Translations under genes and position numbers: made by a program
Notes under the pieces: generated by a model
The model's database searches: none
What the model was told of the DNA's origin: nothing
Seen by the model: the letters and a program-made list of their open reading frames with translations, nothing else
Shown: piece by piece, positions 1,503 to 29,127 of the stretch
Layout of the letters: each line of letters begins with the position of its first letter
How positions within the stretch are numbered: position 1 is the first letter of the stretch
Assembly: GCA_030595925.1 (NCBI GenBank)
Contig: JAUVLC010000021.1
Coordinates: 1 to 30,417 of the forward strand
Length of the DNA: 30,417 nt
Source: Clostridia bacterium
Lineage (GTDB): Bacteria; CBDUZB01; JAGLHV01
Reading direction: 5' to 3'

Positions 1503-3185
1503 ATGAAAAAAATCGTTACAATTTTAACTGCTTTAATCCTAATAGGAATACCTTTTTATGTATGTCATGCGAAATTTGGAATAGGGCTTCCATCGGTAGT
1601 GAAGAAAAGAGTGGAGGATTTGGATAAGAAGGTTAAAGAGGAAAAAGAAGCAGAGAGGAATCATTCTCCTAATACCCCGGCGGAACCTACCCCGGCAAAT
1701 GGGGCAAAAGGATGTCCTATTACCCAGGATATAAGATGGAGTGGAGGGGATCCGGATGTAGGGGATAGTGTGGTGTACGATGTGTATTTTGGTGATTCAA
1801 TATCGCCTTCCCTTGTTTCTGCTGGTCAATTAGGAACAATCTATGATCCCGGAACGTTAAATAATAATACGGTTTATTACTGGAAAATTGTGGCAAGAGA
1901 CAACCATGGTGAATCAGCAATAGGAGAGGTATGGTCCTTTGAAACTGTAATTATCAGAAGCTGGAAGACGGCAGAACTGATTGAGACGGATGATGGAGCT
2001 GCTGCTAATCCTCGAGTTGCGATAGGGCAAGACGGAAATGCACTTGCTGTTTGGCATCAGCATAATAGTACATATAATATTTATGCTAATAGATATGTTT
2101 CCGGTTCGGGTTGGCAGACGGCAGAACTGGTTGAGACAGATAATTCAGGACATGCTGTTTCTCCTCAAGTTGCGATAGGGGGGGACAATAATGCCCTTGC
2201 TGTGTGGGGACAGTGGGATGGCACAAGGGAAAACATTTGGGCAAATAGATATATATCCGGTTTGGGTTGGCAGACGGCAGAACTGATTGAGACGGATGAT
2301 GAAGATGCTTTTGAGCCTCAAGTTGCGATAGGGCAGGACGGTAACGCCCTTGTTGTGTGGAGGCAGTGGGATGGCACTAGGTATAACATTTGGGCAAATA
2401 GATATATATCCGGTTCGGGTTGGCAGAAGACAGCAGAACTGATTGAGATGGATGATGGAAATGCTTCTTATTCTCAAGTTGCGATAGGGGGGGACAATAA
2501 TGCCCTTGCTGTGTGGGGACAGTGTGATGGCACAAGGTAAAACATTTGGGCTAATAGATATATATCCGGTTTGGGTTGGCAAACGGCAGAACTGATCGAG
2601 ATGGGTGATGGAGATGGTTCTGATCCTCAAGTTGCGATAGGACAAGCCGGTAGTGCCCTTGCTGTGTGGAGAGAGTGGGATGGCACAAGGATTAACATTT
2701 GGGCAAATAGATATATATCCGGTTCGGGTTGGCAGACGGCAGAACTGATTGAGATGAGTGATGGAAATGGTTCTGATCCTCAAGTTGCGATAGGAGGGGA
2801 CAATAATGCACTTGCTGTGTGGGGACAGTGGGATGGCATAAGGGATAACATTTGGGCAAATAGATATGTCTCTGGTTTGGGTTGGCAGATGGCAGAAATG
2901 ATCGAGATGGGTGATGGAAATGGTTCTGATCTTCAAGTTGCGATAGGAGGGGACAATAATGCCCTTGCTGTGTGGAGAAAGTCAGATGGCACAAAGTATA
3001 ACATTTGGGTAAATAGATATGTCTCCGGTTCTGGTTGGGGGACGGCAGAACTGATTGAGACGGATGATGGATATGCTTCTGATCCTCAAGTTGCTATAGG
3101 ACAAGACGGTAATGCACTTGTCGTGTGGGGACAATCAGATGGCATCAGAAACAATATTTGGGCCCGTAGATATGACGAGCAATAA
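1503..3185 (+). pseudogene. Secreted FN3 + eight-repeat propeller-like protein, broken by one in-frame stop
   Basis: The gene starts at an ATG after GGAGG with a clear signal peptide (residues 1-23, MKKIVTILTALILIGIPFYV). A charged Lys/Glu linker and a fibronectin type III-like domain follow (about 70-150, with DPDVGDSVVYDVYFG and YYWKIVARD). From residue 154 eight copies of a roughly 50-residue unit run to the end; the core of each unit is (T)AELIE...QVAIG.D.NALAVW..WDGT..NIWANRY.SG.GW, and 'QDGNAL' and 'GDNNAL' versions partly alternate. In unit 4 the codon before AACATTTGG, which is TAT, GAT, GAA or ATT in other copies, is TAA (2538-2540). Frame is unchanged on the other side, so a single substitution splits one reading frame of about 560 codons. 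It is probably an exported or surface beta-propeller, function unknown. The downstream half has no convincing own start. Confidence 0.75.
1962..3175 (+). repeat. Eight tandem ~150-bp coding repeats
   Basis: The DNA of the propeller-like gene is itself strongly repetitive. Segments such as TCAAGTTGCGATAGG and AACATTTGGGCAAATAGATA recur about every 150 bp with few changes, so recent unit duplication or gene conversion is likely. Such near-identity can also collapse or expand in assembly. Confidence 0.8.
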
Positions 3186-3279: not shown

Positions 3280-3450
3280 CGAAAGCAAGAGCTGTTTGTG
3301 AATTTAGGAATAGATTGTCTTGGGTTGAGCGGAAGCAGGTTTGAAAAAGAATTGAAAGTGAGTTCAAGTGGAATAAGCAAATTATATCGAAGAGGAAAAG
3401 AAGTAACTAAAAACGAACCAGAAGTGATACAAAGAATAATTAGTTCCTAA
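3280..3450 (+). pseudogene. C-terminal fragment of a REP-type (Y1/HUH) transposase
   Basis: The frame after a TAG encodes 56 residues beginning RKQELFVNLGIDCLGLSG and containing ELKVSSSGISKLYRRGKE. This is a helix-turn-helix tail typical of the longer Y1 (HUH) transposases, where a DNA-binding domain follows the catalytic domain. No HUH motif survives upstream. The last codons (QRIISS, stop) fall inside the 42-bp segment that recurs inverted at 7641-7682, and the stop is followed at once by TACGCAACGTCCCCTA, presumably this transposase family's own end sequence. Confidence 0.6.
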
Positions 3451-3468
3451 AGTACGCAACGTCCCCTA
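3427..3468 (+). repeat. Left copy of a 42-bp inverted repeat flanking the 4.2-kb island
   Basis: This segment is repeated in inverted orientation at 7641-7682 with one mismatch (position 3430); 3431-3468 is identical over 38 bp. It covers the last codons of the transposase fragment plus the end motif TACGCAACGTCCCCTA. The two copies face each other around the riboswitch-controlled operon. Confidence 0.9.
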
Positions 3469-3612
3469 TGCTCAAGTTTGTACGGAACAAAGGCAGAAAA
3501 AAACACCTATCAAAGGGATAAAAATATATATTCCACCTGCAAAAAATCCACTTTGTTTTTTCTCCACCCCAAAAAGAAAGTTTTTCTGTTGACCCGGAAG
3601 AAAATTTACCCC

Positions 3613-3641
3613 TTGACAAACAAATAAAGGTGGGATACATT
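3613..3641 (+). promoter_or_regulatory. Promoter upstream of the riboswitch
   Basis: TTGACA (3613-3618) and TACATT (3636-3641) are separated by 17 bp, giving a start near 3648, just before the aptamer. This places aptamer, terminator and leader hairpin in the transcript of the following operon. Confidence 0.6.
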
Positions 3642-3661
3642 TGTTGATGTAACGAACATAA

Positions 3662-3757
3662 TAAATCCGAAAGGGCAAACCTTAAGAAATTAGGGGACGC
3701 AAAACTATGGGTCTGAAGGGGAAAAATTCCTGTGATCGCCGGGTTACCGAAGAGAAA
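3662..3757 (+). promoter_or_regulatory. GEMM-I (cyclic-di-GMP class I) riboswitch aptamer
   Basis: The segment carries the highly conserved GEMM-I signature in the right order. These are GGGCAAACC (3673-3681), a short stem with a GAAA tetraloop (3686-3689), GGGACGCAAA (3694-3703), a second stem whose loop region includes GGGTCTGAAGG, and the closing GGGTTACCGA (3741-3750). These blocks match the Vibrio cholerae Vc2 aptamer almost base for base. The GGG before CAAACC is intact; the G-to-A change there that shifts some Geobacter members toward cGAMP is not seen. The 3' strand GCCGGGTT (3738-3745) can pair with AACCGGC (3775-3781) in the 5' arm of the following terminator. Ligand binding would therefore be expected to favour termination (an OFF switch); that direction is inference. 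Confidence 0.9.
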
Positions 3758-3774
3758 AAATAAAAGCAAACAAT

Positions 3775-3820
3775 AACCGGCTTAGTTACCTAAAGACAGG
3801 TAGCAAGTCGGTTTTTTTAT
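3775..3820 (+). terminator. Riboswitch expression platform: intrinsic terminator
   Basis: A long imperfect stem (AACCGGCTTAGTTACCT against AGGTAGCAAGTCGGTT) is followed by TTTTTTTATTTT. It lies 18 nt after the aptamer and 52 nt before the GTG of the nuclease gene, the usual layout of a transcriptional riboswitch. Its 5' arm is complementary to the aptamer 3' strand. Confidence 0.85.
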
Positions 3821-3827
3821 TTTAAAA

Positions 3828-3858
3828 AACCTGTCCCACATACAAAGTGGGGCAGGTT
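3828..3858 (+). promoter_or_regulatory. Leader hairpin 1, next to the Shine-Dalgarno of the EVE-NucS gene
   Basis: A 12-bp stem (AACCTGTCCCAC / GTGGGGCAGGTT, one G-U) closes a 7-nt loop ATACAAA and is followed by AAGGAGGG and the GTG start. There is no T-run, so it is not a terminator. The loop, the adjacent CAC/GTG pairs and the CAGG..TTAA..GGAGGG context recur before the next gene (4778-4816). Confidence 0.75.
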
Positions 3859-3871
3859 AAGGAGGGCGAAA

Positions 3872-4777
3872 GTGAAGTATTGGGTAATTGCTCCTTATAG
3901 TTCTGAAAAATCAGAATTTGATAAAATTTGGGAATATGATGTAAAAAACGAAACAATTGCTATTGGATGGGGACAATTAGGGAATGTGTCAAAAATTAAT
4001 GAAGAGAAACTAAAAGCTAAAATAAAAGAAGTTTATCCTAAAAAAACCACTTCCCATACTTTTAATAGCATTTGGAAGTTTTATAATGAAGTTAGCCTCG
4101 GAGATGTTATTATTGCTCGAAAAGGCAGAAAGAAAATAATTGGCATAGGAGAAGTGACGAAAACAGCTTTTTATGATAAAAAAAAGGGAAAAGAAAGGTC
4201 ATTTAAAAAGGATAAACTTTTTCCAAATTTTATAAGTGTTAAATGGAAACAAAAAGGAGAAATTAATTTTGAAAACTTGGTCTTTTCTATGACTACTATT
4301 TATGAAATTCCAAAAGAGAAGTATAAGTTTTTAATAGAAGGGAAAAAACCCGGAGAGGGAGAACCAGAAAGTGAAGAGCAAAAAGAATTCATTTTAGAAA
4401 AATATCTTGAAGATTTTATTGTATCAAATTTCGATAGGATATTTAAAAATAAATTAAAGTTATATAAAGAGAAAGAGGGAAATGGTCAGCAGTATCCTAC
4501 GGATATTGGATATATCGATATTCTTGCAAAAGAACCGGCAACAAATTCCTATGTAGTAATAGAATTAAAAAAAGGTAGAGGGTCAGATAAAGTCGTGGGT
4601 CAAATCCTTAGATATATGGGATGGGTTATGGAAAATCTTGCCCAAAAAAAAGAAAAAGTTAAAGGGTTGATTATTTGTAGGAAAAAAGATGAAAAACTTG
4701 ATTTTGCTTTAAAACCAATACAAAACAATAATATTAAAGTAAAACTTTATAAAGTTGATTTTCAATTGATTGAATAA
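3872..4777 (+). CDS. EVE/PUA-like domain fused to NucS-type PD-(D/E)XK nuclease
   Basis: The protein has 301 residues. The N-terminal ~160 residues look like an EVE/PUA-type reader of modified bases: YWVIAPY at 3-9, IAIGWGQLGN, and GDVIIARKGRKKIIGIGEV near 77-95. A Pro/Glu-rich linker (about 157-170, KKPGEGEPESEEQ) leads to a C-terminal nuclease of the NucS/DUF91 type: LEDFIVSNFDRIF, then D216 (in GYIDILAKE), E231-L-K233 (VIELKKG) and QILRYMGWV, the expected D...E-x-K active site. EVE domains fused to nucleases are known in modification-dependent restriction, so cleavage of DNA carrying modified bases is a reasonable inference. GTG start follows GGAGGG. It is the first gene after the riboswitch and leader hairpin, 51 nt before the deaminase gene. 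Confidence 0.8.
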   Translation: MKYWVIAPYSSEKSEFDKIWEYDVKNETIAIGWGQLGNVSKINEEKLKAKIKEVYPKKTTSHTFNSIWKFYNEVSLGDVIIARKGRKKIIGIGEVTKTAFYDKKKGKERSFKKDKLFPNFISVKWKQKGEINFENLVFSMTTIYEIPKEKYKFLIEGKKPGEGEPESEEQKEFILEKYLEDFIVSNFDRIFKNKLKLYKEKEGNGQQYPTDIGYIDILAKEPATNSYVVIELKKGRGSDKVVGQILRYMGWVMENLAQKKEKVKGLIICRKKDEKLDFALKPIQNNNIKVKLYKVDFQLIE

Positions 4778-4816
4778 TTAACCAAATATTTCACCTACGA
4801 AGTGGGACAGGGTTAA
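4778..4816 (+). promoter_or_regulatory. Leader hairpin 2, next to the Shine-Dalgarno of the deaminase gene
   Basis: The outer stem TTAACC (4778-4783) / GGTTAA (4811-4816) and inner CAC (4792-4794) / GTG (4802-4804) close a 7-nt loop CTACGAA, related to ATACAAA in leader hairpin 1. The downstream sequence GGACAGGGTTAACGGAGGG parallels GGGCAGGTTAAGGAGGG of the first. The 5' arm has diverged more. It fills most of the 51-nt gap between the two genes. Confidence 0.6.
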
Positions 4817-4828
4817 CGGAGGGAAAAA

Positions 4829-7072
4829 ATGGGAAATAGGGATAATTCTGATATTATCGTCATAGGTCTTACCGGCCCGTTTGGTAGTGGTTGCACTACT
4901 TTTGCAAAATTTTTTGATAAGTCCCCAGATAAAGAAAAAGGAAAAATAAATTTCATAGATTATCTTAGAGCAAATGGTTATTTCCCAGGGGAAAATGGAA
5001 AAGAAAAGGAACTATTAGATAATAGAATATATGATTTTTATGAGTTGTTAGAAAAAGTAGATGATATTTTAAAGAGACCTCTTAACCGGATAACAGAAAT
5101 GGAACTTAAAATTATGTTACCGAGAATATTTAAGCAATTTGAGAATAAAGATAAAATTCTAAAGTTTGTAAAGAACGAAAGAAAAAAAAAGTACTCTGCG
5201 TTCTATGCAGATAAAGAAAATATAGAAGGCATAAAAGAACGCATTTTTTCCGGATTAAAAGTGTTATTGGAAGAAAGGGAAGTTTTAAATGCTTTGAGTG
5301 GCGAAACGAGTAAATTAGCAATGATTGTCGATAAGAGTAATCCTGAGAAGCACCGCTTTAAAAGAATCTCACTATCTGATATTATTATTTTTAAAACTTT
5401 ATTAAATGTGGATGAAAAAGAATTTGATGAAGGGGAAAATATTCAGAAAAGTGTTGAAGAGTATAATAAAAAAGTGAAAAGTATGGCTGAAGAAAAAGAT
5501 ATTAATATAGATAAGAAAATAAATGAAGATATTAAAGCGTGGTATAAAAATTTTTCAAAGGTTACTCAATTATCAAAAGAAGAATTAAAAAAGATAGAAG
5601 AATATCGAAAGTTAATGCAAGATTTTGGTGATAATATTAGAAAATGTGGAAATCCTTATGATTATAAAACTACTTACGAAAAGAAAAATGTAATTAGTGA
5701 GAAATTAGTAAGAGAAGATCAGGATACAAAATATGAATTAGTTAAAGAGGTTAAAAATCTAATCGAATTGCTTGGTAAAAAAGAGAATCATAAGGTTTTT
5801 ATCGTGGATGCTTTGAGAAATCCCCATGAGGTATTATATCTTAGAAAACACTTTCTGAATTTTTATTTAATATCGCTTTTTGCTCCCAACAAACTTAGAA
5901 AAGAGAGAATAGATAAAAAGGGGAAAGACTCTTTTAATAAAGATGATGAGAGAGATAGTGGTGAAGGTGTAAAAGGGGTTGAATTACTTTATAAACAAAA
6001 TGTGACTTTATGCAGTACGTTAGCAGATGTTGCTATAAATAATTATGTAGCGGAAGATGAAGGGGAAAATGAATATTTTACTAAGCCATTTCGTAGAAAA
6101 ATTGAAAAAGGTATTTATAGTCTGGATGATTTCAAAAGAAAAATTGTAAGATACTTTGCTCTTATGATAAATAAGGGATGCACAAAGCCTAATGATGATG
6201 AACAATTAATGAATCAAGCCTATGCTGTAGCAATGAAATCAAATTGTATAAGCAGACAGGTGGGAGCTGTGATTGTGGATGACGAGGGATATATAATTGG
6301 TGCTGGGTGGAATGACGTTGGAGAAGGACACATTAGTTGTGGATTAATTGAAATAAAAGATTTGCGAAAAGGCTTGGATGAATCTAATCCTATAGGGATA
6401 TTTCAAAAGTATTTAAAATATATTTTAAATAATAAGGTAGAAAAAAATAATACAGAGCAAGTTGAAGAATGGGAAGATTTATTAAAGAAGTTTTATACGG
6501 ATATTCATGAAGAACACTGTGTTTGTTTTAATGAATTAAGTTCTATGAAAAAATTTGAGAAAAAATTTGGAGAGAAATTTAATAAAGAAAAAGATAATAT
6601 AAAAAAAGAAGTAGATAAAACATATCCCGATAATTTAAATTTAGCAAAAGATATAAAAGAGATAATAGATAAAATAAATATTAACAAAATATATCAGAAA
6701 AAAATAGAACATTGTAGGGCCCTTCATGCAGAAGAAAATGCTATTTTGCAGAGTGCACGGAGAGGGGGAATGGGGTTGAAAGGGGCAAAAATTTATACTA
6801 CTACGTATCCATGTTCTTTATGTGCCCGAAAAATTTTACAAGTTGGAATAAGGGAAGTAATTTATGATGATTCATATCCTGACAAGTTATCGGAAATGTT
6901 TTTACAAGAGGGACAAAAAAGAGTTGACTTGAGACATTTTGAGGGGGTTAAACCATTGGGATATTTTAGATTGTTTAAGCCAGTTTATAACCAAAAAGAG
7001 TGGCAGGAATTAAAAATTAAGCACTTACTGGAAAAATATAGCTATAAGAGTAAAGAAGAAAAAAAGAGGTAA
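4829..7072 (+). CDS. dcdV: AvcD/DcdV-like antiphage P-loop + deoxycytidylate deaminase
   Basis: The protein has 747 residues. It begins with a P-loop nucleotide-kinase-like domain (Walker A GPFGSGCTT, residues 16-24) that runs through a long charged, coiled-coil-rich middle (about 100-300). A core near 300-360 (KVFIVDALRNPHEVLYL) fits a dNMP-kinase fold. From about 450 a zinc-dependent deaminase of the dCMP type follows (AYAVAMKSNCISRQVGAVIV), with an inserted ~130-residue segment and the catalytic HAE (H633, E635) and PCSLC (C662, C665). This order is that of DcdV/AvcD proteins, which destroy dCTP/dCMP pools on phage infection. In Vibrio an RNA (AvcI) holds AvcD inactive. Here the upstream gap is short but contains a structured leader. 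ATG follows GGAGGG. Antiviral function is inferred from family architecture. Confidence 0.85.
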   Translation: MGNRDNSDIIVIGLTGPFGSGCTTFAKFFDKSPDKEKGKINFIDYLRANGYFPGENGKEKELLDNRIYDFYELLEKVDDILKRPLNRITEMELKIMLPRIFKQFENKDKILKFVKNERKKKYSAFYADKENIEGIKERIFSGLKVLLEEREVLNALSGETSKLAMIVDKSNPEKHRFKRISLSDIIIFKTLLNVDEKEFDEGENIQKSVEEYNKKVKSMAEEKDINIDKKINEDIKAWYKNFSKVTQLSKEELKKIEEYRKLMQDFGDNIRKCGNPYDYKTTYEKKNVISEKLVREDQDTKYELVKEVKNLIELLGKKENHKVFIVDALRNPHEVLYLRKHFLNFYLISLFAPNKLRKERIDKKGKDSFNKDDERDSGEGVKGVELLYKQNVTLCSTLADVAINNYVAEDEGENEYFTKPFRRKIEKGIYSLDDFKRKIVRYFALMINKGCTKPNDDEQLMNQAYAVAMKSNCISRQVGAVIVDDEGYIIGAGWNDVGEGHISCGLIEIKDLRKGLDESNPIGIFQKYLKYILNNKVEKNNTEQVEEWEDLLKKFYTDIHEEHCVCFNELSSMKKFEKKFGEKFNKEKDNIKKEVDKTYPDNLNLAKDIKEIIDKININKIYQKKIEHCRALHAEENAILQSARRGGMGLKGAKIYTTTYPCSLCARKILQVGIREVIYDDSYPDKLSEMFLQEGQKRVDLRHFEGVKPLGYFRLFKPVYNQKEWQELKIKHLLEKYSYKSKEEKKR

Positions 7073-7078
7073 TTTATC

Positions 7079-7633
7079 ATGAAAAAAAAACCAAAAATAT
7101 ATGATTGCTATCCTTTATGGATTGTTATTTTTGCAAAGATTCTAATACTTTCGGGTTATGTTGCAGGAGCTTATATAATGTTTAGGTTAAGCCCAATTAT
7201 TGGGATTTTATATGTAGTGTATCTATTTTTTCTTGAGCGTTATTTTTTTAAATCAAAAGAGGATAAAAAAATAGCAGAATATAAAGAAGTAATCAAATTT
7301 AATCCCAATAATGCAAAAGCTCATTATAATCTTGGGGCGATTTATTACATAAAGGGTTTGTTGGATGAAGCGATAGAAGGGTTTAAGAAAGCGATAAGGA
7401 TAGAGCCGGATTTTGCGGAGGCTCATTGCGATCTTGGGGCAATTTATGGTAGGAAAGGTTTGGATGATAGAGCGATAGTAGAATTTAAAGAGGCACTCAG
7501 GATTAATCCTGATTATGTAGATGTGCGTCTTAATCTTGGGTTAGCTTACTACAAGAAAGGGTTGCCGGATGAAGCGATAAAGGAGTTTAAAGAGGTCATT
7601 AAGATGAAACCTGATGATGCGGATGCACATTGA
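7079..7633 (+). CDS. Membrane-anchored TPR protein, probably truncated
   Basis: The protein has 184 residues. Two hydrophobic segments at the N-terminus (about 13-36 and 38-56, LWIVIFAKILILSGYV and IIGILYVVYLFFLE) are followed by three full TPR units plus the start of a fourth (NAKAHYNLGAIYYIKG..., AEAHCDLGAIYGRKG..., VDVRLNLGLAYYKKG..., ending DDADAH). The gene starts 6 nt after the deaminase gene with GAGG in front, so it is translated from the same operon. The last residues are exactly where the next repeat would read AH-Y/x-NLG. The stop comes 8 nt before the right inverted repeat (7641), so the reading frame was probably cut by the element. It resembles the intact 595-residue TPR protein at 26167-27954. 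Role unknown; TPRs usually bind partner proteins. Confidence 0.75.
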   Translation: MKKKPKIYDCYPLWIVIFAKILILSGYVAGAYIMFRLSPIIGILYVVYLFFLERYFFKSKEDKKIAEYKEVIKFNPNNAKAHYNLGAIYYIKGLLDEAIEGFKKAIRIEPDFAEAHCDLGAIYGRKGLDDRAIVEFKEALRINPDYVDVRLNLGLAYYKKGLPDEAIKEFKEVIKMKPDDADAH

Positions 7634-7640
7634 GGGGGAA

Positions 7641-7682
7641 TAGGGGACGTTGCGTACTTTAGGAACTAATTATTCTTTTTAT
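7641..7682 (-). repeat. Right copy of the 42-bp inverted repeat flanking the island
   Basis: Reverse complement of 3427-3468 with one mismatch. On the minus strand it reads the same transposase tail codons (IKRIISS, stop) followed by TACGCAACGTCCCCTA. Beyond it no clear transposase similarity continues, so this copy is a short remnant. Confidence 0.9.
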
Positions 7683-7878
7683 GGACATCTTGGGGGACAA
7701 TACTCTAATAAAAGTCAATAGATAAAAACAACAAAAAAAGGAGTTTCCCAAGGTCAAACTAACCACAAAAATTTCACTCCCCTACAACCCAAAACTAACT
7801 ATTATTTTTACCAAGCCGAACCCTTAAAACCTCCAAAAATTTGAAATGTTGATTTTTATATCGGGGGAAATTTTTTTC

Positions 7879-7907
7879 TTGACAAAAAAAAATGTTTTTG
7901 CTATACT
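7879..7907 (+). promoter_or_regulatory. Promoter of rex
   Basis: A perfect TTGACA (7879-7884) and TATACT (7902-7907) are 17 bp apart. Transcription would begin within the Rex-type operator that follows. It is the best promoter seen before the hydrogenase genes and may serve rex and hydCBA together. Confidence 0.8.
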
Positions 7908-7925
7908 TTGTGAAAATAGTAACAA
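7908..7925 (+). promoter_or_regulatory. Rex operator
   Basis: TTGTGA-AAATAG-TAACAA is an 18-bp partial dyad of the form known for Rex boxes (TTGTKA N6 TMACAA). It begins at the base after the -10 box, so bound Rex would block initiation. NADH, which releases Rex, would then raise expression of rex and probably the NADH-linked hydrogenase downstream. Confidence 0.8.
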
Positions 7926-7938
7926 AGTAGGAGAATTG

Positions 7939-8616
7939 ATGGCTGATAAAATTTGTATTAAAAAAAAATGTTTTTCCCCCGATGTAATAAAAAGACTAAG
8001 TTTATACTTAAGAAATTTAAGAAAAATTAGGAAAGAAAACATTACTGTTATTTCTTCCGCTAAAATAATAGAATTTCTAAATGTCTCTGCCGAACAGTTC
8101 AGAAAGGACTTATCTTACTTTGGAGGATTTGGCAAGCGTGGTGTGGGATACAAAGTAGAAAAGTTAATTAAAGAAATAGAAGCAATTTTAGGGATAAATA
8201 AAAAATGGCCGATAGCGTTAATCGGTGCAGGAAAATTAGGGACTGCTCTTTTAAAATTTGAAGGGTTTTCTAAGTTGAATAGCAGAATTACCTGTGCTTT
8301 CGATAGTGATAAAGGTAAAATCGGAAAAATAATTAACGGTATAAAAATCGAGGATATTAAATCTTTAGGGAAAATAATAAAAGAAAAAGAAATTAAAATT
8401 GCCATAATAACAGCTCCCCCGGAAAAAGCACAGGGGATAGTAGATGAATTGGTTTGTTTAAAGATTAGAGGTATTTTAAATTTTGCGCCGGTTATTCTTA
8501 AAATACCTGATGGGATATTTATATCTAATGTAGATATGGCTTGTGAGTTGGAAAGTTTGCTTTTTTTTGTTAAGCATAAAGACGGGCTCGTAATGACGGA
8601 GACAAAAGCCCAATAA
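7939..8616 (+). CDS. rex: Redox-sensing transcriptional repressor Rex
   Basis: The protein has 225 residues from the ATG at 7939, which has GGAG 7 nt upstream; an in-frame ATG at 7846 lies upstream of the promoter and is not usable. N-terminal winged helix (about 10-80) has the typical 'VSAEQFRKDLSYFGGFGKRG' recognition region. The C-terminal Rossmann NADH-binding domain (about 85-210) has ALIGAGKLGTAL as the GxGxxG motif and AIITAPPEKAQ. Length fits the family (205-230). Rex represses fermentation and hydrogenase genes when NADH is low; its own operator and the adjacent hydCBA genes fit that role. Followed by a 170-bp gap holding a REP hairpin. Confidence 0.92.
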   Translation: MADKICIKKKCFSPDVIKRLSLYLRNLRKIRKENITVISSAKIIEFLNVSAEQFRKDLSYFGGFGKRGVGYKVEKLIKEIEAILGINKKWPIALIGAGKLGTALLKFEGFSKLNSRITCAFDSDKGKIGKIINGIKIEDIKSLGKIIKEKEIKIAIITAPPEKAQGIVDELVCLKIRGILNFAPVILKIPDGIFISNVDMACELESLLFFVKHKDGLVMTETKAQ

Positions 8617-8632
8617 ATTGGGAAACTACAAT

Positions 8633-8697
8633 AATTATAATACAGACTGTTTGCAGGAATGACAGATAAAATACGCAGGCTAAAGCCTGCGGCTACC
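8633..8697 (-). repeat. REP hairpin with partial outer arm
   Basis: REP at 8674-8697: hairpin CGCAGGC-TAAA-GCCTGCG followed by GCTACC, so the GTAG foot is on the minus strand. Upstream (8633-8668) a degraded arm (ATACAGACTGTTTGCAGGA, ATGACAG) matches the arms seen at 24151-24204 and 28893-28938. Lies between rex and hydC. Confidence 0.8.
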
Positions 8698-8785
8698 ACA
8701 TAAAATCTTAGTTAGGATACGGTTTGGTAAGAGTTTCAAATGAGGAGTATTTAAAAATTTATAAGCAAAAGGCGGAGGTATAAGA

Positions 8786-9235
8786 ATGGACAAAGATAAA
8801 CTTAACCAAATAATGGAAAAGTTCCAGGATAAACAGCAGGCATTACTTCCCTGTTTGCATTTTATTCAGGAGGAAGAAGGAAAAATAAGTGAAGAAGTAA
8901 TGAATTTTTTAGCTGAGAATTTAGGTGTTCCCCGGGTGGAAATTTATAGTGTAGTTACTTTTTACTCTATGTTTTCTCTGGAGAAACAAAATAAAAATGT
9001 GATCAGGGTTTGTGCTTCTTTATCCTGCTATCTCAACGGTACGGATAAAATTATTAATGCGTTAAAAGAAATTTTAGGAATAAAAATCGGAGAATCGACC
9101 CCGGATGGAAAGTTTACCTTAGAAGAAGTATCCTGTCTGGGATTGTGTGACCAGGCTCCGGCAATGATGGTTAATGATAAAGAATATGGGAATTTGACCG
9201 AGGATAAAGTGAAGGAGATTATTAAAAGTTATTAG
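8786..9235 (+). CDS. hydC: NADH-dependent [FeFe] hydrogenase, NuoE-like subunit HydC
   Basis: The protein has 149 residues and is the thioredoxin-like [2Fe-2S] subunit of trimeric hydrogenases and complex I (NuoE/HndA). Cluster ligands are visible as VCASLSCYLNG (C-x4-C) and VSCLGLCDQAP (C-x3-C). The N-terminal helical domain (about 1-75: LPCLHFIQEEEGKISEEV and VPRVEIYSVVTFYSMF) is standard. Length matches HydC/NuoE. GGAGG precedes the ATG. First of the three structural genes; it passes electrons between the NADH subunit HydB and the hydrogenase HydA in the cytoplasm. Confidence 0.92.
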   Translation: MDKDKLNQIMEKFQDKQQALLPCLHFIQEEEGKISEEVMNFLAENLGVPRVEIYSVVTFYSMFSLEKQNKNVIRVCASLSCYLNGTDKIINALKEILGIKIGESTPDGKFTLEEVSCLGLCDQAPAMMVNDKEYGNLTEDKVKEIIKSY

Positions 9236-9256
9236 TAAGAAAAATTATGGAGTAAA

Positions 9257-9290
9257 ATCCCCCTGGCCCCCTTTTTCAAAGGGGGGAGAA
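9257..9290. repeat. C-rich/G-rich hairpin between hydC and hydB
   Basis: CCCCCTTT / AAAGGGGG (9267-9274, 9278-9285) is a perfect 8-bp stem with a 3-nt loop. It has no T-run, so it is not a standard terminator. It may tune hydC versus hydB expression or protect a processed end; it resembles dispersed C-tract repeats seen in many environmental genomes. Confidence 0.6.
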
Positions 9291-9351
9291 TGAGGGTGCG
9301 GGCGGGCAGGCAGAATAAAATAAAAGATATAATTAGCGGAAGGAGAAAAAA

Positions 9352-10635
9352 ATGAAAGTAATTTTTAAAAACATAGAAAAAGAGGGTTACACCGGAAACA
9401 TTGAAGATTATGTTGCAGCAGAAGGGTATCAGTCTTTAAAAAAAGTAGTTACTATGGGACCGGAAGAAATTATTTCCGAATTAAAAACATCTAAGTTGGT
9501 AGGCAGGGGAGGAGCGGCTTTTCCGACAGGGCTGAAATGGGAATTTACTAAAAAAAGTCAGGGAAGTCCTAAATATGTAGTTTGTAATGCTGATGAAGGA
9601 GAGCCCGGGACTTTTAAGGACCGGCAGATTTTAGAGAAAGACCCGCATTTATTACTGGAAGGAATGATTATTTGTGGGTTTACTATAAAAGCTGAGACAG
9701 GATTTATTTATATCCGTGGAGAATATAAGCACGCTTACGAGGTATTAGAAAAAGCAATTAAGCAGGCAGAAGAAAAAAACTTTTTAGGAAATAATATTCT
9801 CGGCTCTGATTTTTCTTTTAAGATTAAACTTTATCGGGGTGCAGGGGCTTATGTTTGCGGTGAGGAAACAGCCCTTTTGGATTCCTTAGAGGGGAAAAAG
9901 GGACAGTCACGGGTAAAACCGCCGTTTCCTACTTTTGTGGGATTAAATAATAGTCCTACGGTTTTAAATAATGTAGAAACTTTTGCTAATATATCCGAAA
10001 TTATTTCAAAAGGGGGTAAAAGTTTTTCTCAAATAGGTTCTGCTGATTACCCCGGGACAAAATTGTATTGTCTTTCCGGGGATATTAATAAACCCGGAGT
10101 ATATGAACTTCCGATGAATATTACTTTAGGAGAGTTGATAGAAAATTATGGGGGAGGGGTTAAGGGAAAATTAAAGGCGGTCTTGCCGGGTGGAGTATCC
10201 AGTAGTTTATTAACGGATAAGGATTTAGATGTAACGATGGATTATTCCAGTGTGCAAAAGGCAGGTAGTATGTTAGGTTCGGGAGCGGTTATTGTTATTA
10301 ATCAGGAACGCTGTATGGTGGATATAGCTAAACGATGCAGTGAATTTTTTGATTATGAATCCTGCGGAAAATGTACCCCCTGCCGGGAAGGCACAAAACG
10401 GACACAGGAAATTTTAAATAATTTTGCTAATGGAAAAGGGGAATTAAGTAGTTTAGAGCTTTTGAAAGAATTGCAGGAAGTAATGTATGATACTTCGCGG
10501 TGTGGATTGGGACAGGCGGCACTTAATGTAGTAAGGTCTGCCCAGGAAAAATTTCCCGATGAGTTTGAAGAACATATTACCCAACAGAAATGTAAGCTTA
10601 ATGTTTGTTTAATGAATAAAGGAGGGAATGTTTAA
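9352..10635 (+). CDS. hydB: NADH-dependent [FeFe] hydrogenase, short NuoF-like subunit HydB
   Basis: The protein has 427 residues, the flavin/NADH subunit. The NADH-binding glycine-rich motif is LVGRGGAAFPTGLKWEFT (about 50-67). The FMN-binding region is NADEGEPGTFKDR (81-93) and GAYVCGEETALLDSLEG, and the [4Fe-4S] ligands are ESCGKCTPCREGT plus C in DTSRCGLG. Bifurcating HydB proteins (about 600 residues) add an N-terminal [2Fe-2S] domain and a C-terminal two-[4Fe-4S] ferredoxin domain. Both are missing here. The tail EEHITQQKCKLNVCLMN looks like the start of the linker to that lost ferredoxin domain. This short form is the one described for non-bifurcating NADH-dependent hydrogenases such as Syntrophomonas Hyd1. 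The gap to hydA is 2 nt, and the AAAGGAGG for hydA lies in the last hydB codons. Confidence 0.93.
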   Translation: MKVIFKNIEKEGYTGNIEDYVAAEGYQSLKKVVTMGPEEIISELKTSKLVGRGGAAFPTGLKWEFTKKSQGSPKYVVCNADEGEPGTFKDRQILEKDPHLLLEGMIICGFTIKAETGFIYIRGEYKHAYEVLEKAIKQAEEKNFLGNNILGSDFSFKIKLYRGAGAYVCGEETALLDSLEGKKGQSRVKPPFPTFVGLNNSPTVLNNVETFANISEIISKGGKSFSQIGSADYPGTKLYCLSGDINKPGVYELPMNITLGELIENYGGGVKGKLKAVLPGGVSSSLLTDKDLDVTMDYSSVQKAGSMLGSGAVIVINQERCMVDIAKRCSEFFDYESCGKCTPCREGTKRTQEILNNFANGKGELSSLELLKELQEVMYDTSRCGLGQAALNVVRSAQEKFPDEFEEHITQQKCKLNVCLMNKGGNV

Positions 10636-10637
10636 AA

Positions 10638-12374
10638 ATGTCTAATTTAATAAATTTAACTATTGACGGGCAGAAGGTTCAGGCAGTAAAAGATACGACT
10701 GTTTTTGAAGCGGCTAAAAAAATAAATATTAATATCCCTCATTTGTGTCAGCATGAGGCGTTGTCCATTTACGGTGCTTGCCGGGTTTGTATGGTGGAAA
10801 TTGAAGGAAGGCCGCGATTAGAACCTTCCTGTGCTGTTCCTGTTGAGGAAGGGATGAAGATAACAACTAATAATCAAAGAATCAGAAAATCGCGTAAAAT
10901 GATTGTGGAATTGTTATTGGCTAATCATCCTGAGGATTGTCTTACCTGCGATAGAAACCAGATCTGCGAATTGAGAAAGTTAGCTTATGATTTAGGTATA
11001 AGAAAATTAAGATTTGAAAAAGGAAGAAAGTATGATTATAAAGAAGATACTTCTTCTCCGGCGGTAATCAGAGACCCGAACAAATGTATCTTGTGCGGCC
11101 GTTGTATTAGAGTATGCAAAGAGATTCAGTCGGTAGGGGTAATTGATTTTGTTAACAGGGGAGGACGTACCCAGGTTTTGACTTTTTTTAATCAGGGATT
11201 GGATAATATTGAATGTACTAATTGCGGGCAGTGTATTCTTGCCTGTCCTACCGGGGCATTAAGGGAGAAAACAGTAGTAGATGAGGTTTGGGAAGCAATT
11301 GCTGACCCCAAAAAATTTGTAGTAATGCAGACGGCTCCGGCGGTAAGAGCCGCGATTGGAGAAGAGTTTGGTTTGCCGGCGGGAAGTTTGGTTACCGGGA
11401 AAATGGCAGCAGCTTTAAGAAGATTAGGTTTTGATAAGATATTTGATACACAGTTTACAGCGGATTTAACTATTGTGGAAGAAGCGAATGAATTGGTAGA
11501 AAGAATAACCAATGAAGGAACGTTGCCTTTGATTACTTCCTGCTCTCCGGGTTGGGTAAAATATATTGAACATTTTTTTCCTAAATGTTTAGGGCATGTA
11601 TCTACCTGTAAATCTCCTCAGCAGATGTTTGGGGCAATAGCTAAAACTTACTATGCGGAAAAAATAAATGTAAAGCCGGAAGATATGTATGTTGTTTCCA
11701 TTATGCCTTGTACAGCCAAGAAGTTTGAAGCAAATCGTCCGGAAATGAAAGATTCAGGGGTACAGGATGTTGATGCGGTATTAACTACACGCGAAGCTGC
11801 CAGGATGATTAAAGAGGCAGGAGTAGATTTTGTTAATTTGCCGGATGAGGATTTTGATAAACCGTTAGGAATATCAACCGGGGCGGCGGTAATCTTTGGT
11901 GCTACCGGGGGAGTAATGGAAGCTGCCTTGCGGACGGCATACGAGGTAGTGACCGGAAAAACGTTAGAAAAGGTAGAATTTGAGCAGGTACGGGGAATGG
12001 AATCGATTAAAAAAGCCAGTGTAGTTCTTAACGGCTTAGAAGTAAAAGTAGCCGTAGCTCATGGATTGTCCAATGCTAAATTTTTATTGGAAGAAATTGA
12101 GCAGGGCAAGTCTCCGTATCATTTTATTGAAGTAATGGCTTGTCCCGGAGGATGTTTGGGTGGTGGAGGACAGCCGATGCCTACTAATTTAGAGGTAAGA
12201 AAAGCGCGGGCAGTCAGTATATATCAGGAGGATGAAGGAAAAGCAATCAGAAAATCGCATGAAAATCCGGCTATTAAGGCTCTCTATGAGGAATTTTTAA
12301 AAAAGCCGTTAGGGGAAAAATCTCATCATCTTCTGCATACGCATTATACGGAAAGAGAGATTTATAAAAAATAA
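10638..12374 (+). CDS. hydA: [FeFe] hydrogenase catalytic subunit HydA
   Basis: The protein has 578 residues, the M3-type layout also found in CpI of Clostridium pasteurianum. Residues 1-75 hold a [2Fe-2S] domain (CQHEALSIYGACRVCMVEIEG and PSCAVPV). About 80-120 hold a His-ligated [4Fe-4S] cluster (HPEDCLTCDRNQICELR). About 140-215 hold two [4Fe-4S] clusters (CILCGRCIRVC and CTNCGQCILACPTG). The H-cluster domain follows: L1 TSCSPGWVKY (C302, S303), L2 MPCTAKKFE (C358), L3 EVMACPGGCLGGGGQP (C502, C506). Relative to CpI numbering the offset is a constant 3, and the second L1 cysteine is Ser. It reduces protons or oxidises H2 with electrons from HydB/HydC; cytoplasmic, no signal peptide. A terminator follows at 12465. 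Confidence 0.95.
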   Translation: MSNLINLTIDGQKVQAVKDTTVFEAAKKININIPHLCQHEALSIYGACRVCMVEIEGRPRLEPSCAVPVEEGMKITTNNQRIRKSRKMIVELLLANHPEDCLTCDRNQICELRKLAYDLGIRKLRFEKGRKYDYKEDTSSPAVIRDPNKCILCGRCIRVCKEIQSVGVIDFVNRGGRTQVLTFFNQGLDNIECTNCGQCILACPTGALREKTVVDEVWEAIADPKKFVVMQTAPAVRAAIGEEFGLPAGSLVTGKMAAALRRLGFDKIFDTQFTADLTIVEEANELVERITNEGTLPLITSCSPGWVKYIEHFFPKCLGHVSTCKSPQQMFGAIAKTYYAEKINVKPEDMYVVSIMPCTAKKFEANRPEMKDSGVQDVDAVLTTREAARMIKEAGVDFVNLPDEDFDKPLGISTGAAVIFGATGGVMEAALRTAYEVVTGKTLEKVEFEQVRGMESIKKASVVLNGLEVKVAVAHGLSNAKFLLEEIEQGKSPYHFIEVMACPGGCLGGGGQPMPTNLEVRKARAVSIYQEDEGKAIRKSHENPAIKALYEEFLKKPLGEKSHHLLHTHYTEREIYKK

Positions 12375-16054: not shown

Positions 16055-16113
16055 CTTGTCTATCCTTAATTTGGATGATTGGGCGGAATGGATAATAATA
16101 TGATGTCTCATAA

Positions 16114-16244
16114 AGAGATTGTTGAAAAACGGTAGCCAACGGCTTTAGCCGGCGAATTTTTTTGCTGATTATTACTAAATATTACCACTTTTTCACGCAA
16201 ACTAAAGTTTGCGACTACCAAATTCGTATTTTTCAACAATTTCT
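16114..16244. mobile_element. 131-bp MITE with internal REP pair
   Basis: Terminal inverted repeats AGAGATTGTTGAAAAA (16114-16129) and TTTTTCAACAATTTCT (16229-16244), one mismatch. Inside are two diverged REP hairpins in inverted orientation (16131-16154 and 16196-16219) with GTAG feet. A second 131-bp copy lies inverted at 28966-29096. The right flank (to about 16322) carries the arm TTGTGACACAGTCTCC / AAGTGCGGAATGGCAGAATG common to several repeat loci here. The 16034-16368 gap otherwise holds no gene. Confidence 0.8.
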
Positions 16245-16368
16245 AAATGAGGCAACTACAATCGTTTTAAAAATCATAATTGTGACACAGTCTCCAAGTG
16301 CGGAATGGCAGAATGTGTTATTTTGCAGGACTCTTTATCTTTAAATTTTTTAAAAATAGGTGGGAAAA

Positions 16369-28714: not shown

Positions 28715-28892
28715 ATATATAGTAATTAAAGCATTTCTTTTTTTGTTTGAAAAAACATATTCCTTTCTACAAAAACTTTCTATAAAAAAACTATCCATGA
28801 TAACTAATTTTTCTATTGCAAGATTTAGATTTAATTTGGTATGCTAAATAATAGAGCATTAGATTAAGGTATTAAAGAGTTCTATAAAATAA

Positions 28893-28938
28893 CACATTCT
28901 GTCATTCCGCACTTGTAGATTGTGTCATAACTCTACTT
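28893..28938 (+). repeat. Copy of the long-arm repeat sequence
   Basis: ACACATTCTGTCATTCCGCA / CTTGTAGATTGTGTCATAACTC is close to the reverse complement of 24163-24202 and of 16280-16322. It lies 27 nt before the second 131-bp MITE. The stretch 28715-28892 is AT-rich with no gene. Confidence 0.75.
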
Positions 28939-28965
28939 TTTACAACAATTGTAGTTTCGACATTT

Positions 28966-29096
28966 AGAGATTGTTGAAAAAGACAAATTTTGTAGTCGCA
29001 AACTTTAGTTTGCGTGAAAACATGGTAATATTTGGTAATAATCAGCAAAAAAATTCGTCGGCTGAAGCCGTCGGCTACCGTTTTTCAACAATCTCT
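28966..29096. mobile_element. Second 131-bp MITE, inverted copy of 16114-16244
   Basis: Terminal repeats AGAGATTGTTGAAAAA (28966-28981) and TTTTTCAACAATCTCT (29081-29096) are perfect. The interior is the reverse complement of the 16.1-kb element with moderate divergence and includes two diverged REP hairpins (28992-29014 and 29056-29079). Same total length as the first copy. Confidence 0.85.
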
Positions 29097-29127
29097 TTAT
29101 GACACCTGTCGGAAAAGGTATTCATTA

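What the first reader, a model, noticed from the sequence alone, without database searches (positions are those of the whole stretch)
3613..7633. Riboswitch-controlled EVE-NucS nuclease + AvcD/DcdV-like deaminase operon
Seen: promoter, GEMM-I aptamer with all conserved blocks, a terminator whose 5' arm is complementary to the aptamer 3' strand, then three closely spaced genes. The proteins are an EVE/PUA-like + PD-(D/E)XK nuclease, a P-loop + dCMP-type deaminase with intact HAE/PCxxC, and a membrane TPR protein. Known: DcdV/AvcD proteins deplete deoxycytidine nucleotides during phage infection, EVE-nuclease fusions are associated with modified-DNA restriction, and GEMM-I RNAs bind cyclic-di-GMP (a variant binds cGAMP). 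Inference: a second-messenger riboswitch sets the level of a two-pronged antiphage operon (DNA cleavage plus nucleotide depletion). I know of no described defence operon wired this way. The pairing predicts ligand-dependent termination, i.e. defence is lowered when c-di-GMP is high.
Basis: partly seen in the sequence, partly recalled or inferred. Interest (0 to 1): 0.9.

Follow-up and report, generated by a model that had tools for sequence, protein, structure and literature searches.

The report
c-di-GMP riboswitch before antiphage operon
A genuine RNA sensor of the bacterial signal molecule cyclic-di-GMP sits directly before genes for a DNA-cutting enzyme and a nucleotide-destroying antiphage enzyme, suggesting that this bacterium adjusts virus defence to its lifestyle signal, probably through a leader copied from elsewhere in the genome.

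Summary
The leader has a sigma70-like promoter (3613-3641), a strong Rfam c-di-GMP-I aptamer (3664-3751, 75.4 bits against a gathering score of 35) and a terminator (3775-3813). It runs straight into an operon: a NucS-type PD-(D/E)XK nuclease (3872-4777), a divergent AvcD/DcdV-type dCTP deaminase (4829-7072) and a probably truncated membrane TPR protein (7079-7633). No described defence operon wired this way was found in the open literature held. The terminator's 5' arm can pair with the aptamer's 3' strand, so c-di-GMP is predicted to switch the operon OFF; this pairing is only moderately better than shuffled sequence.

Two paralogous leaders in the same genome, and an orthologue in a sister species, precede unrelated genes of unknown function. 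One lies beside a conjugative relaxase; the cassette's downstream edge also matches relaxase loci. DcdV relatives in three other genomes, and five further DcdV-type loci, lack the riboswitch. The wiring thus looks lineage-specific, best explained by defence cargo landing behind a duplicated c-di-GMP-responsive leader.

"EVE" is not established. Ligand binding, direction of control and antiphage activity are untested.

The parts
3427..3469 (+). REP-like repeat (3' end of a RAYT transposase remnant, AAAGTACGCAACGTCCCCTAT), left arm of a 43-bp inverted pair around the cassette
   Evidence: 98% complementary to 7640-7682; 11 copies of the core in the genome, one just after a RAYT C-terminus
3613..3641 (+). 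sigma70-like promoter TTGACA-N17-TACATT
   Evidence: 10/12; promoter module recurs at C48, C142, C143 and in G001
3664..3751 (+). c-di-GMP-I (GEMM-I) riboswitch aptamer, G at position 20, GAAA tetraloop
   Evidence: 75.4 bits, E 2.5e-13; for position 20
3732..3742 (+). aptamer 3' strand GUGAU-C-GCCGG, predicted antiterminator 5' half
   Evidence: RNAduplex -13.6 kcal/mol, 3.3% of shuffles as good; the GCCGG part appears in partial-transcript folds
3775..3819 (+). intrinsic terminator: hairpin 3775-3813 plus U-tract; its 5' arm (3777-3789) is the antiterminator 3' half
   Evidence: -20.5 kcal/mol, 7 U
3828..3858 (+). 12-bp hairpin just before the Shine-Dalgarno, shared with the C142/G001 leaders
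3859..3866 (+). Shine-Dalgarno AAGGAGGG of gene 1
   Evidence: sequence
3872..4777 (+). gene 1: PDC-S02 candidate defence nuclease, C-terminal NucS_C/YhcG_C PD-(D/E)XK domain (D216 in GYIDIL, E231-L-K233)
   Evidence: EVE only 14.2 bits
4829..7072 (+). gene 2: long AvcD/DcdV-type anti-phage dCTP deaminase, P-loop-like N-terminus, HAE (633-635) and PCxxC (661-665)
7079..7633 (+). gene 3: N-terminal membrane segment and TPR repeats, probably truncated at its 3' end
   Evidence: its stop codon lies 6 nt before the right repeat
7640..7682 (-). REP-like repeat, right arm of the inverted pair
7755..7838 (+). edge element (78-80% identity) shared with contigs C48 and C11; its core is also found on C143; C48 and C143 carry TrwC/MobF relaxase genes downstream

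Best explanation
A c-di-GMP-I riboswitch controls, by premature transcription termination, a two-enzyme defence operon (NucS-type nuclease plus AvcD/DcdV-type dCTP deaminase). Shown by computation: aptamer, terminator and operon. Predicted: without ligand the terminator's 5' arm pairs with the aptamer's 3' strand and RNA polymerase reads through; with c-di-GMP the aptamer folds, the terminator forms and the operon is OFF. Inferred: basal expression is set by lifestyle (high when c-di-GMP is low, for example in motile cells), while the deaminase depletes dCTP/dCMP during infection and the nuclease cuts invading DNA. Inferred history: the leader is a duplicated control module, and horizontally acquired defence genes settled behind this copy in a relaxase-associated region, inheriting c-di-GMP control.
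For: Rfam hit far above the gathering score. The window leader is 86% identical over 262 nt to a second leader and 77% over 257 nt to a third in the same genome; the third is conserved with its gene in a sister genome. Terminator lies wholly downstream of the aptamer with antiterminator pairing; in the C142 leader and its orthologue the terminator arm can instead pair with the conserved GGCAAACC core (-11.8 and -14.1 kcal/mol), which also predicts OFF. 18 GEMM-I aptamers in the genome, most before pilin-like, secreted or similar genes typical of c-di-GMP control, and 9 GGDEF genes. PADLOC and NCBIfam hits for both enzymes. DcdV relatives sit next to restriction or PDC-S02 genes in L020 and L021; a NucS-domain relative sits within a type I RM locus beside an Abi gene. 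11 of 12 c-di-GMP-I riboswitches tested in C. difficile were OFF switches (PMC3649979).
Against: Antiterminator pairing beats only 97% of shuffles. The DcdV relative in the sister genome and those in L021 and L022 have no GEMM-I nearby, and five further DcdV-type loci (L076-L079, L081) have none either, so the link is not conserved. The C142 and C48 leaders do not precede recognised defence genes. The deaminase falls below NCBIfam's curated cut-off (282 of 400 bits). No expression, binding or phage data.
Confidence: 0.6

Rival explanations
1. Chance neighbourhood: a duplicated leader, selected for other cargo, lies before the defence genes after a recent insertion; regulation by c-di-GMP occurs physically but is not adaptive and has no role in defence.
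For: Three leader copies with three unrelated cargoes; inverted REP-like copies and a shared relaxase-edge element around the cassette; no riboswitch at DcdV relatives elsewhere; TPR gene apparently truncated.
Against: Aptamer core, terminator, second hairpin, SD and ORFs are all intact, with about 50 nt between terminator and start codon; a leader with no benefit should decay.
Confidence: 0.25
2. ON switch: c-di-GMP raises expression, as predicted for other GEMM-I leaders of this genome in which the aptamer 3' strand is itself the terminator 5' arm.
For: Both architectures occur in this genome; in L004, L006, L011, L015 and L018 the terminator overlaps the aptamer.
Against: In the window the terminator is wholly downstream and does not use aptamer bases; no anti-antiterminator found.
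Confidence: 0.1
3. The structured leader RNA also acts as an AvcI-like RNA antitoxin (type III toxin-antitoxin) for the deaminase, with the terminator setting the RNA-to-mRNA ratio.
For: AvcI is a non-coding RNA encoded next to avcD that binds and inhibits AvcD (PMC10511110, PMC12409362); type III antitoxins are typically separated from the toxin gene by a terminator (PMC12373285); only 51 nt separate gene 1 from gene 2, too little for an AvcI of about 171 nt.
Against: The leader is a standard c-di-GMP-I aptamer shared with genes that encode no deaminase; no sequence link to AvcI was tested or is known.
Confidence: 0.05

Closest known systems
c-di-GMP-I (GEMM-I) riboswitch, Rfam RF01051, terminator-controlled OFF type as in Clostridioides difficile
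   Same: Aptamer, transcription-termination platform, several duplicated leaders in one genome (C. difficile: four regions 88-93% identical, and two in prophages; PMC3649979)
   Different: Targets described there are motility, exported, adhesion, prophage-lysis or unknown proteins; here the downstream genes are defence-type enzymes
AvcID / DcdV anti-phage dCTP/dCMP deaminase
   Same: Full-length relationship, P-loop-like domain plus zinc deaminase motifs, mobile-element or defence neighbourhood
   Different: 747 aa (model 437 aa) with a long insert; below the curated cut-off; no adjacent AvcI-like RNA; preceded by a nuclease gene and a riboswitch
PADLOC PDC-S02 candidate defence protein / NucS-domain endonucleases
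   Same: Matches PDC-S02 over residues 56-300; C-terminal nuclease about 44-45% identical to NucS-domain proteins on plasmids
   Different: Not an NucS orthologue (31 of 216 bits); N-terminal domain unassigned; co-encoded with DcdV, a pairing also seen in a sister genome but there with an Mrr-type nuclease
Vibrio cholerae VSP-I (CBASS DncV next to AvcID)
   Same: A cyclic-dinucleotide system and an AvcD-type deaminase in one neighbourhood (PMC12409362)
   Different: There the nucleotide belongs to CBASS signalling; here it would act on mRNA through a riboswitch, and the aptamer is of the c-di-GMP rather than the cGAMP type

Membership tests
c-di-GMP-I riboswitch (RF01051) | Covariance-model score above gathering threshold, full length | tested here: met
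   75.4 vs 35 bits, model 1-87
c-di-GMP-I riboswitch (RF01051) | G at position 20 (c-di-GMP rather than cGAMP specificity; numbering and rule from own knowledge) | tested here: met
   G before GCAAA
c-di-GMP-I riboswitch (RF01051) | Expression platform mutually exclusive with the folded aptamer | tested here: inconclusive
   Terminator clear; antiterminator -13.6 kcal/mol, 3.3% of shuffles as good
c-di-GMP-I riboswitch (RF01051) | Ligand binding | not testable with these tools
   needs in-line probing or ITC
AvcD/DcdV anti-phage dCTP deaminase | Full-length match to family models | tested here: met
   PADLOC dCTPase 1.4e-94; NF041025 2-435 of 437, 6.6e-84
AvcD/DcdV anti-phage dCTP deaminase | Score above NCBIfam's curated cut-off (400 bits) for the equivalog | tested here: not met
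   282 bits; so filed as a divergent relative, not as the equivalog
AvcD/DcdV anti-phage dCTP deaminase | Zinc deaminase motif H-A-E ... P-C-x-x-C | tested here: met
   H633-A-E, PCSLC 661-665; invariant HAE and PCxLC in four relatives
AvcD/DcdV anti-phage dCTP deaminase | Adjacent inhibitory RNA AvcI | tested here: not met
   Only 51 nt between gene 1 and gene 2, less than the ~171-nt minimal AvcI
EVE-domain modification-dependent nuclease | EVE domain above Pfam cut-off | tested here: not met
   14.2 bits vs 23, E 0.046, residues 71-113; structure model pLDDT 44
NucS/YhcG-type PD-(D/E)XK nuclease domain | Domain match with catalytic D...ExK | tested here: met
   YhcG_C 36.4 and NucS_C 30.6 bits, both over cut-off; D in GYIDIL, ELK

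The most novel reading that the evidence does not exclude
A mobile c-di-GMP-sensing leader acts as a portable control module that places newly acquired defence cargo under the lifestyle signal, switching costly nuclease and dNTP-depletion defence off when c-di-GMP is high (sessile or biofilm state) and on in low-c-di-GMP cells.
Probability: 0.35. Interest if true: 0.78.

Novelty: new variant of a known kind. Interest (0 to 1): 0.6.

Why it matters
Little is known about how defence systems are tuned before infection. A riboswitch that reads c-di-GMP directly would tie antiphage nucleotide depletion to the motile/sessile decision, a link that can be tested in vitro with the leader alone. A leader that recruits different cargo would also show how a new defence operon can acquire regulation at once.

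Tried and rejected
Structure prediction of gene 1 and gene 2 gave pLDDT 44 and 36 with few homologues, so no fold search was run. Sequence search of the PDB found no relative of gene 1. IMG/VR scans for both proteins, for the 311-aa protein behind the C142 leader and for the leader motif found nothing. The idea of a defence sub-regulon made of the three leaders was tested and not supported: the 311-aa and 216-aa proteins have no family above noise. The 43-bp inverted repeats were first read as transposon ends; the genome holds 11 copies of their core, one directly after a RAYT C-terminus, so they are ordinary REP-like elements and do not show that the cassette moved as a unit. 0 open-access papers combine c-di-GMP riboswitch, phage defense and deaminase. 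Other riboswitch-plus-defence searches gave papers none of which, by title, listed terms or the few I opened, describes a riboswitch-controlled defence operon; I did not read them all.
Full report
What is there. Rfam finds one RNA in the 30-kb window, a c-di-GMP-I aptamer at 3664-3751, 75.4 bits against a gathering score of 35, whole model matched. It carries G at the position that favours c-di-GMP over cGAMP (the rule is from my own knowledge). A sigma70-like promoter lies at 3613-3641, a terminator hairpin with seven U follows at 3775-3819, then a second hairpin, a strong Shine-Dalgarno and a GTG start at 3872. Gene gaps are 51 and 6 nt, with no convincing internal promoter or terminator, so one transcript is likely.

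The proteins. Gene 1 matches PADLOC's candidate defence family PDC-S02 (5e-44) and, in its C-terminal part, Pfam YhcG_C and NucS_C above their cut-offs, with D...ExK residues present. Plasmid relatives of this domain, 44-45% identical, are annotated as NucS-domain proteins, and the Acinetobacter one lies in a type I restriction locus next to an Abi gene. EVE is not established: 14.2 bits against a cut-off of 23, and the predicted structure was unusable. Gene 2 matches PADLOC's dCTPase (1.4e-94) and NCBIfam's anti-phage dCTP deaminase along its whole length, though below the curated cut-off (282 of 400 bits). The zinc motif is intact. The P-loop-like motif has Cys in place of the usual Lys, as in three relatives. 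Gene 3 is a membrane TPR protein that ends just before an interspersed repeat.

Defence context elsewhere. The nearest DcdV relatives lie beside restriction or candidate defence genes: in a sister genome (L020) followed by an Mrr-type PDC-S02 nuclease and a membrane TPR protein, and in a Spirochaetes MAG (L021) next to methyltransferases and a nicking-endonuclease-like protein. In a third MAG (L022) the upstream ORFs look like a restriction-type target-recognition region and a large NTPase, by eye only. The pairing DcdV + PDC-S02-type nuclease + TPR thus occurs twice, with different nuclease domains, which makes a joint role plausible but does not prove it.

The leader is a reused module. The genome has 18 GEMM-I aptamers above threshold, most before pilin-like, secreted or similar genes, and nine GGDEF genes. 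Three leaders form one family: the window's, one on contig C48 (86% over 262 nt) and one on contig C142 (77% over 257 nt, including the second hairpin and Shine-Dalgarno). The C142 leader and its 311-aa gene are conserved in the sister genome. The three cargoes are unrelated; the other two have no recognisable family, so I do not claim a defence regulon. The C48 copy lies upstream of a TrwC/MobF relaxase. A fourth contig, C143, has the promoter without the aptamer, followed by a lipoprotein, a restriction-endonuclease-like gene (my reading of the sequence; its PADLOC match is weak) and a relaxase fragment. An edge element after the window cassette (7755-7838) matches C48 and C11 at 78-80% identity; its 19-nt core occurs only five times in the genome, three of them on the two relaxase contigs. 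Together this suggests a relaxase-associated cargo site. The flanking 43-bp inverted repeats are ordinary REP-like copies.

Direction of control. In this genome GEMM-I terminators fall into two architectures. In some, the aptamer's own 3' strand is the terminator's 5' arm, which predicts ON. In the window the terminator is wholly downstream and its 5' arm can pair with the aptamer's 3' strand (-13.6 kcal/mol; 3.3% of shuffles as good). Folding growing transcripts shows part of this helix (the GCCGG/CCGGC pairs) before the terminator's 3' arm is complete. This predicts OFF with c-di-GMP, the behaviour of 11 of 12 c-di-GMP-I riboswitches in C. difficile (PMC3649979). In the C142 leader and its orthologue the terminator arm pairs with the aptamer core GGCAAACC instead, also OFF. 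The inference is reasonable but rests on modest energies.

How it probably works. Inferred: in low c-di-GMP the operon is read through and both enzymes are made; in high c-di-GMP it is shut. Known AvcD is itself held inactive by an RNA, AvcI, until a phage stops host transcription (PMC10511110). There is no room for an AvcI-sized RNA between genes 1 and 2, so post-translational control here is unknown.

How widespread. DcdV relatives in L020, L021 and L022, and five further DcdV-type loci (L076-L079, L081), have no GEMM-I hit. Only three genomes of the phylum are held. The link is therefore seen once. Elements are known; the combination was not found described in the open literature held, which lacks most subscription journals.

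Verdict. A real, well-formed c-di-GMP riboswitch in front of a defence-type operon, most likely produced by reuse of a duplicated leader. New wiring of known parts, testable in vitro, function unproven.

Noticed in passing
L011 (G000:C56:6807-6887), L045, L054, L057: GEMM-I aptamers of this genus with A instead of G at position 20, which would predict cGAMP rather than c-di-GMP sensing.
   Followed up: partly
G000 GEMM-I leaders L001-L018: One genome holds both predicted ON-type (terminator overlaps aptamer) and OFF-type (terminator downstream) GEMM-I leaders.
   Followed up: partly
L115 (G000:C143): Copy of the window promoter without the aptamer before a lipoprotein and a restriction-endonuclease-like gene, next to a broken TrwC relaxase.
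   Followed up: partly
L042 (G000:C48), reverse strand positions 1163-2637: Two 492-bp units 92% identical, each with a small 86-aa membrane protein gene, directly upstream of the riboswitch leader; looks like a cassette array.
   Followed up: no
window 1503-3185: Secreted-looking protein of 51-aa repeats split by a stop at about 2540; probably a pseudogene or sequencing error.
   Followed up: no
window 8660-30411: Many copies of a palindromic interspersed repeat GTAGCCGCAGGCTTTAGCCTGCG, and a 233-bp inverted pair 16105-16337 / 28873-29105.
   Followed up: no
window 7846-12374: Rex-type redox regulator followed by a [FeFe] hydrogenase operon.
   Followed up: no
L041:888-1823 and L116 (G001:C333): Unknown 311-aa protein behind a conserved GEMM-I leader; a relative is on a Synechocystis plasmid (37% identity).
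   Followed up: partly
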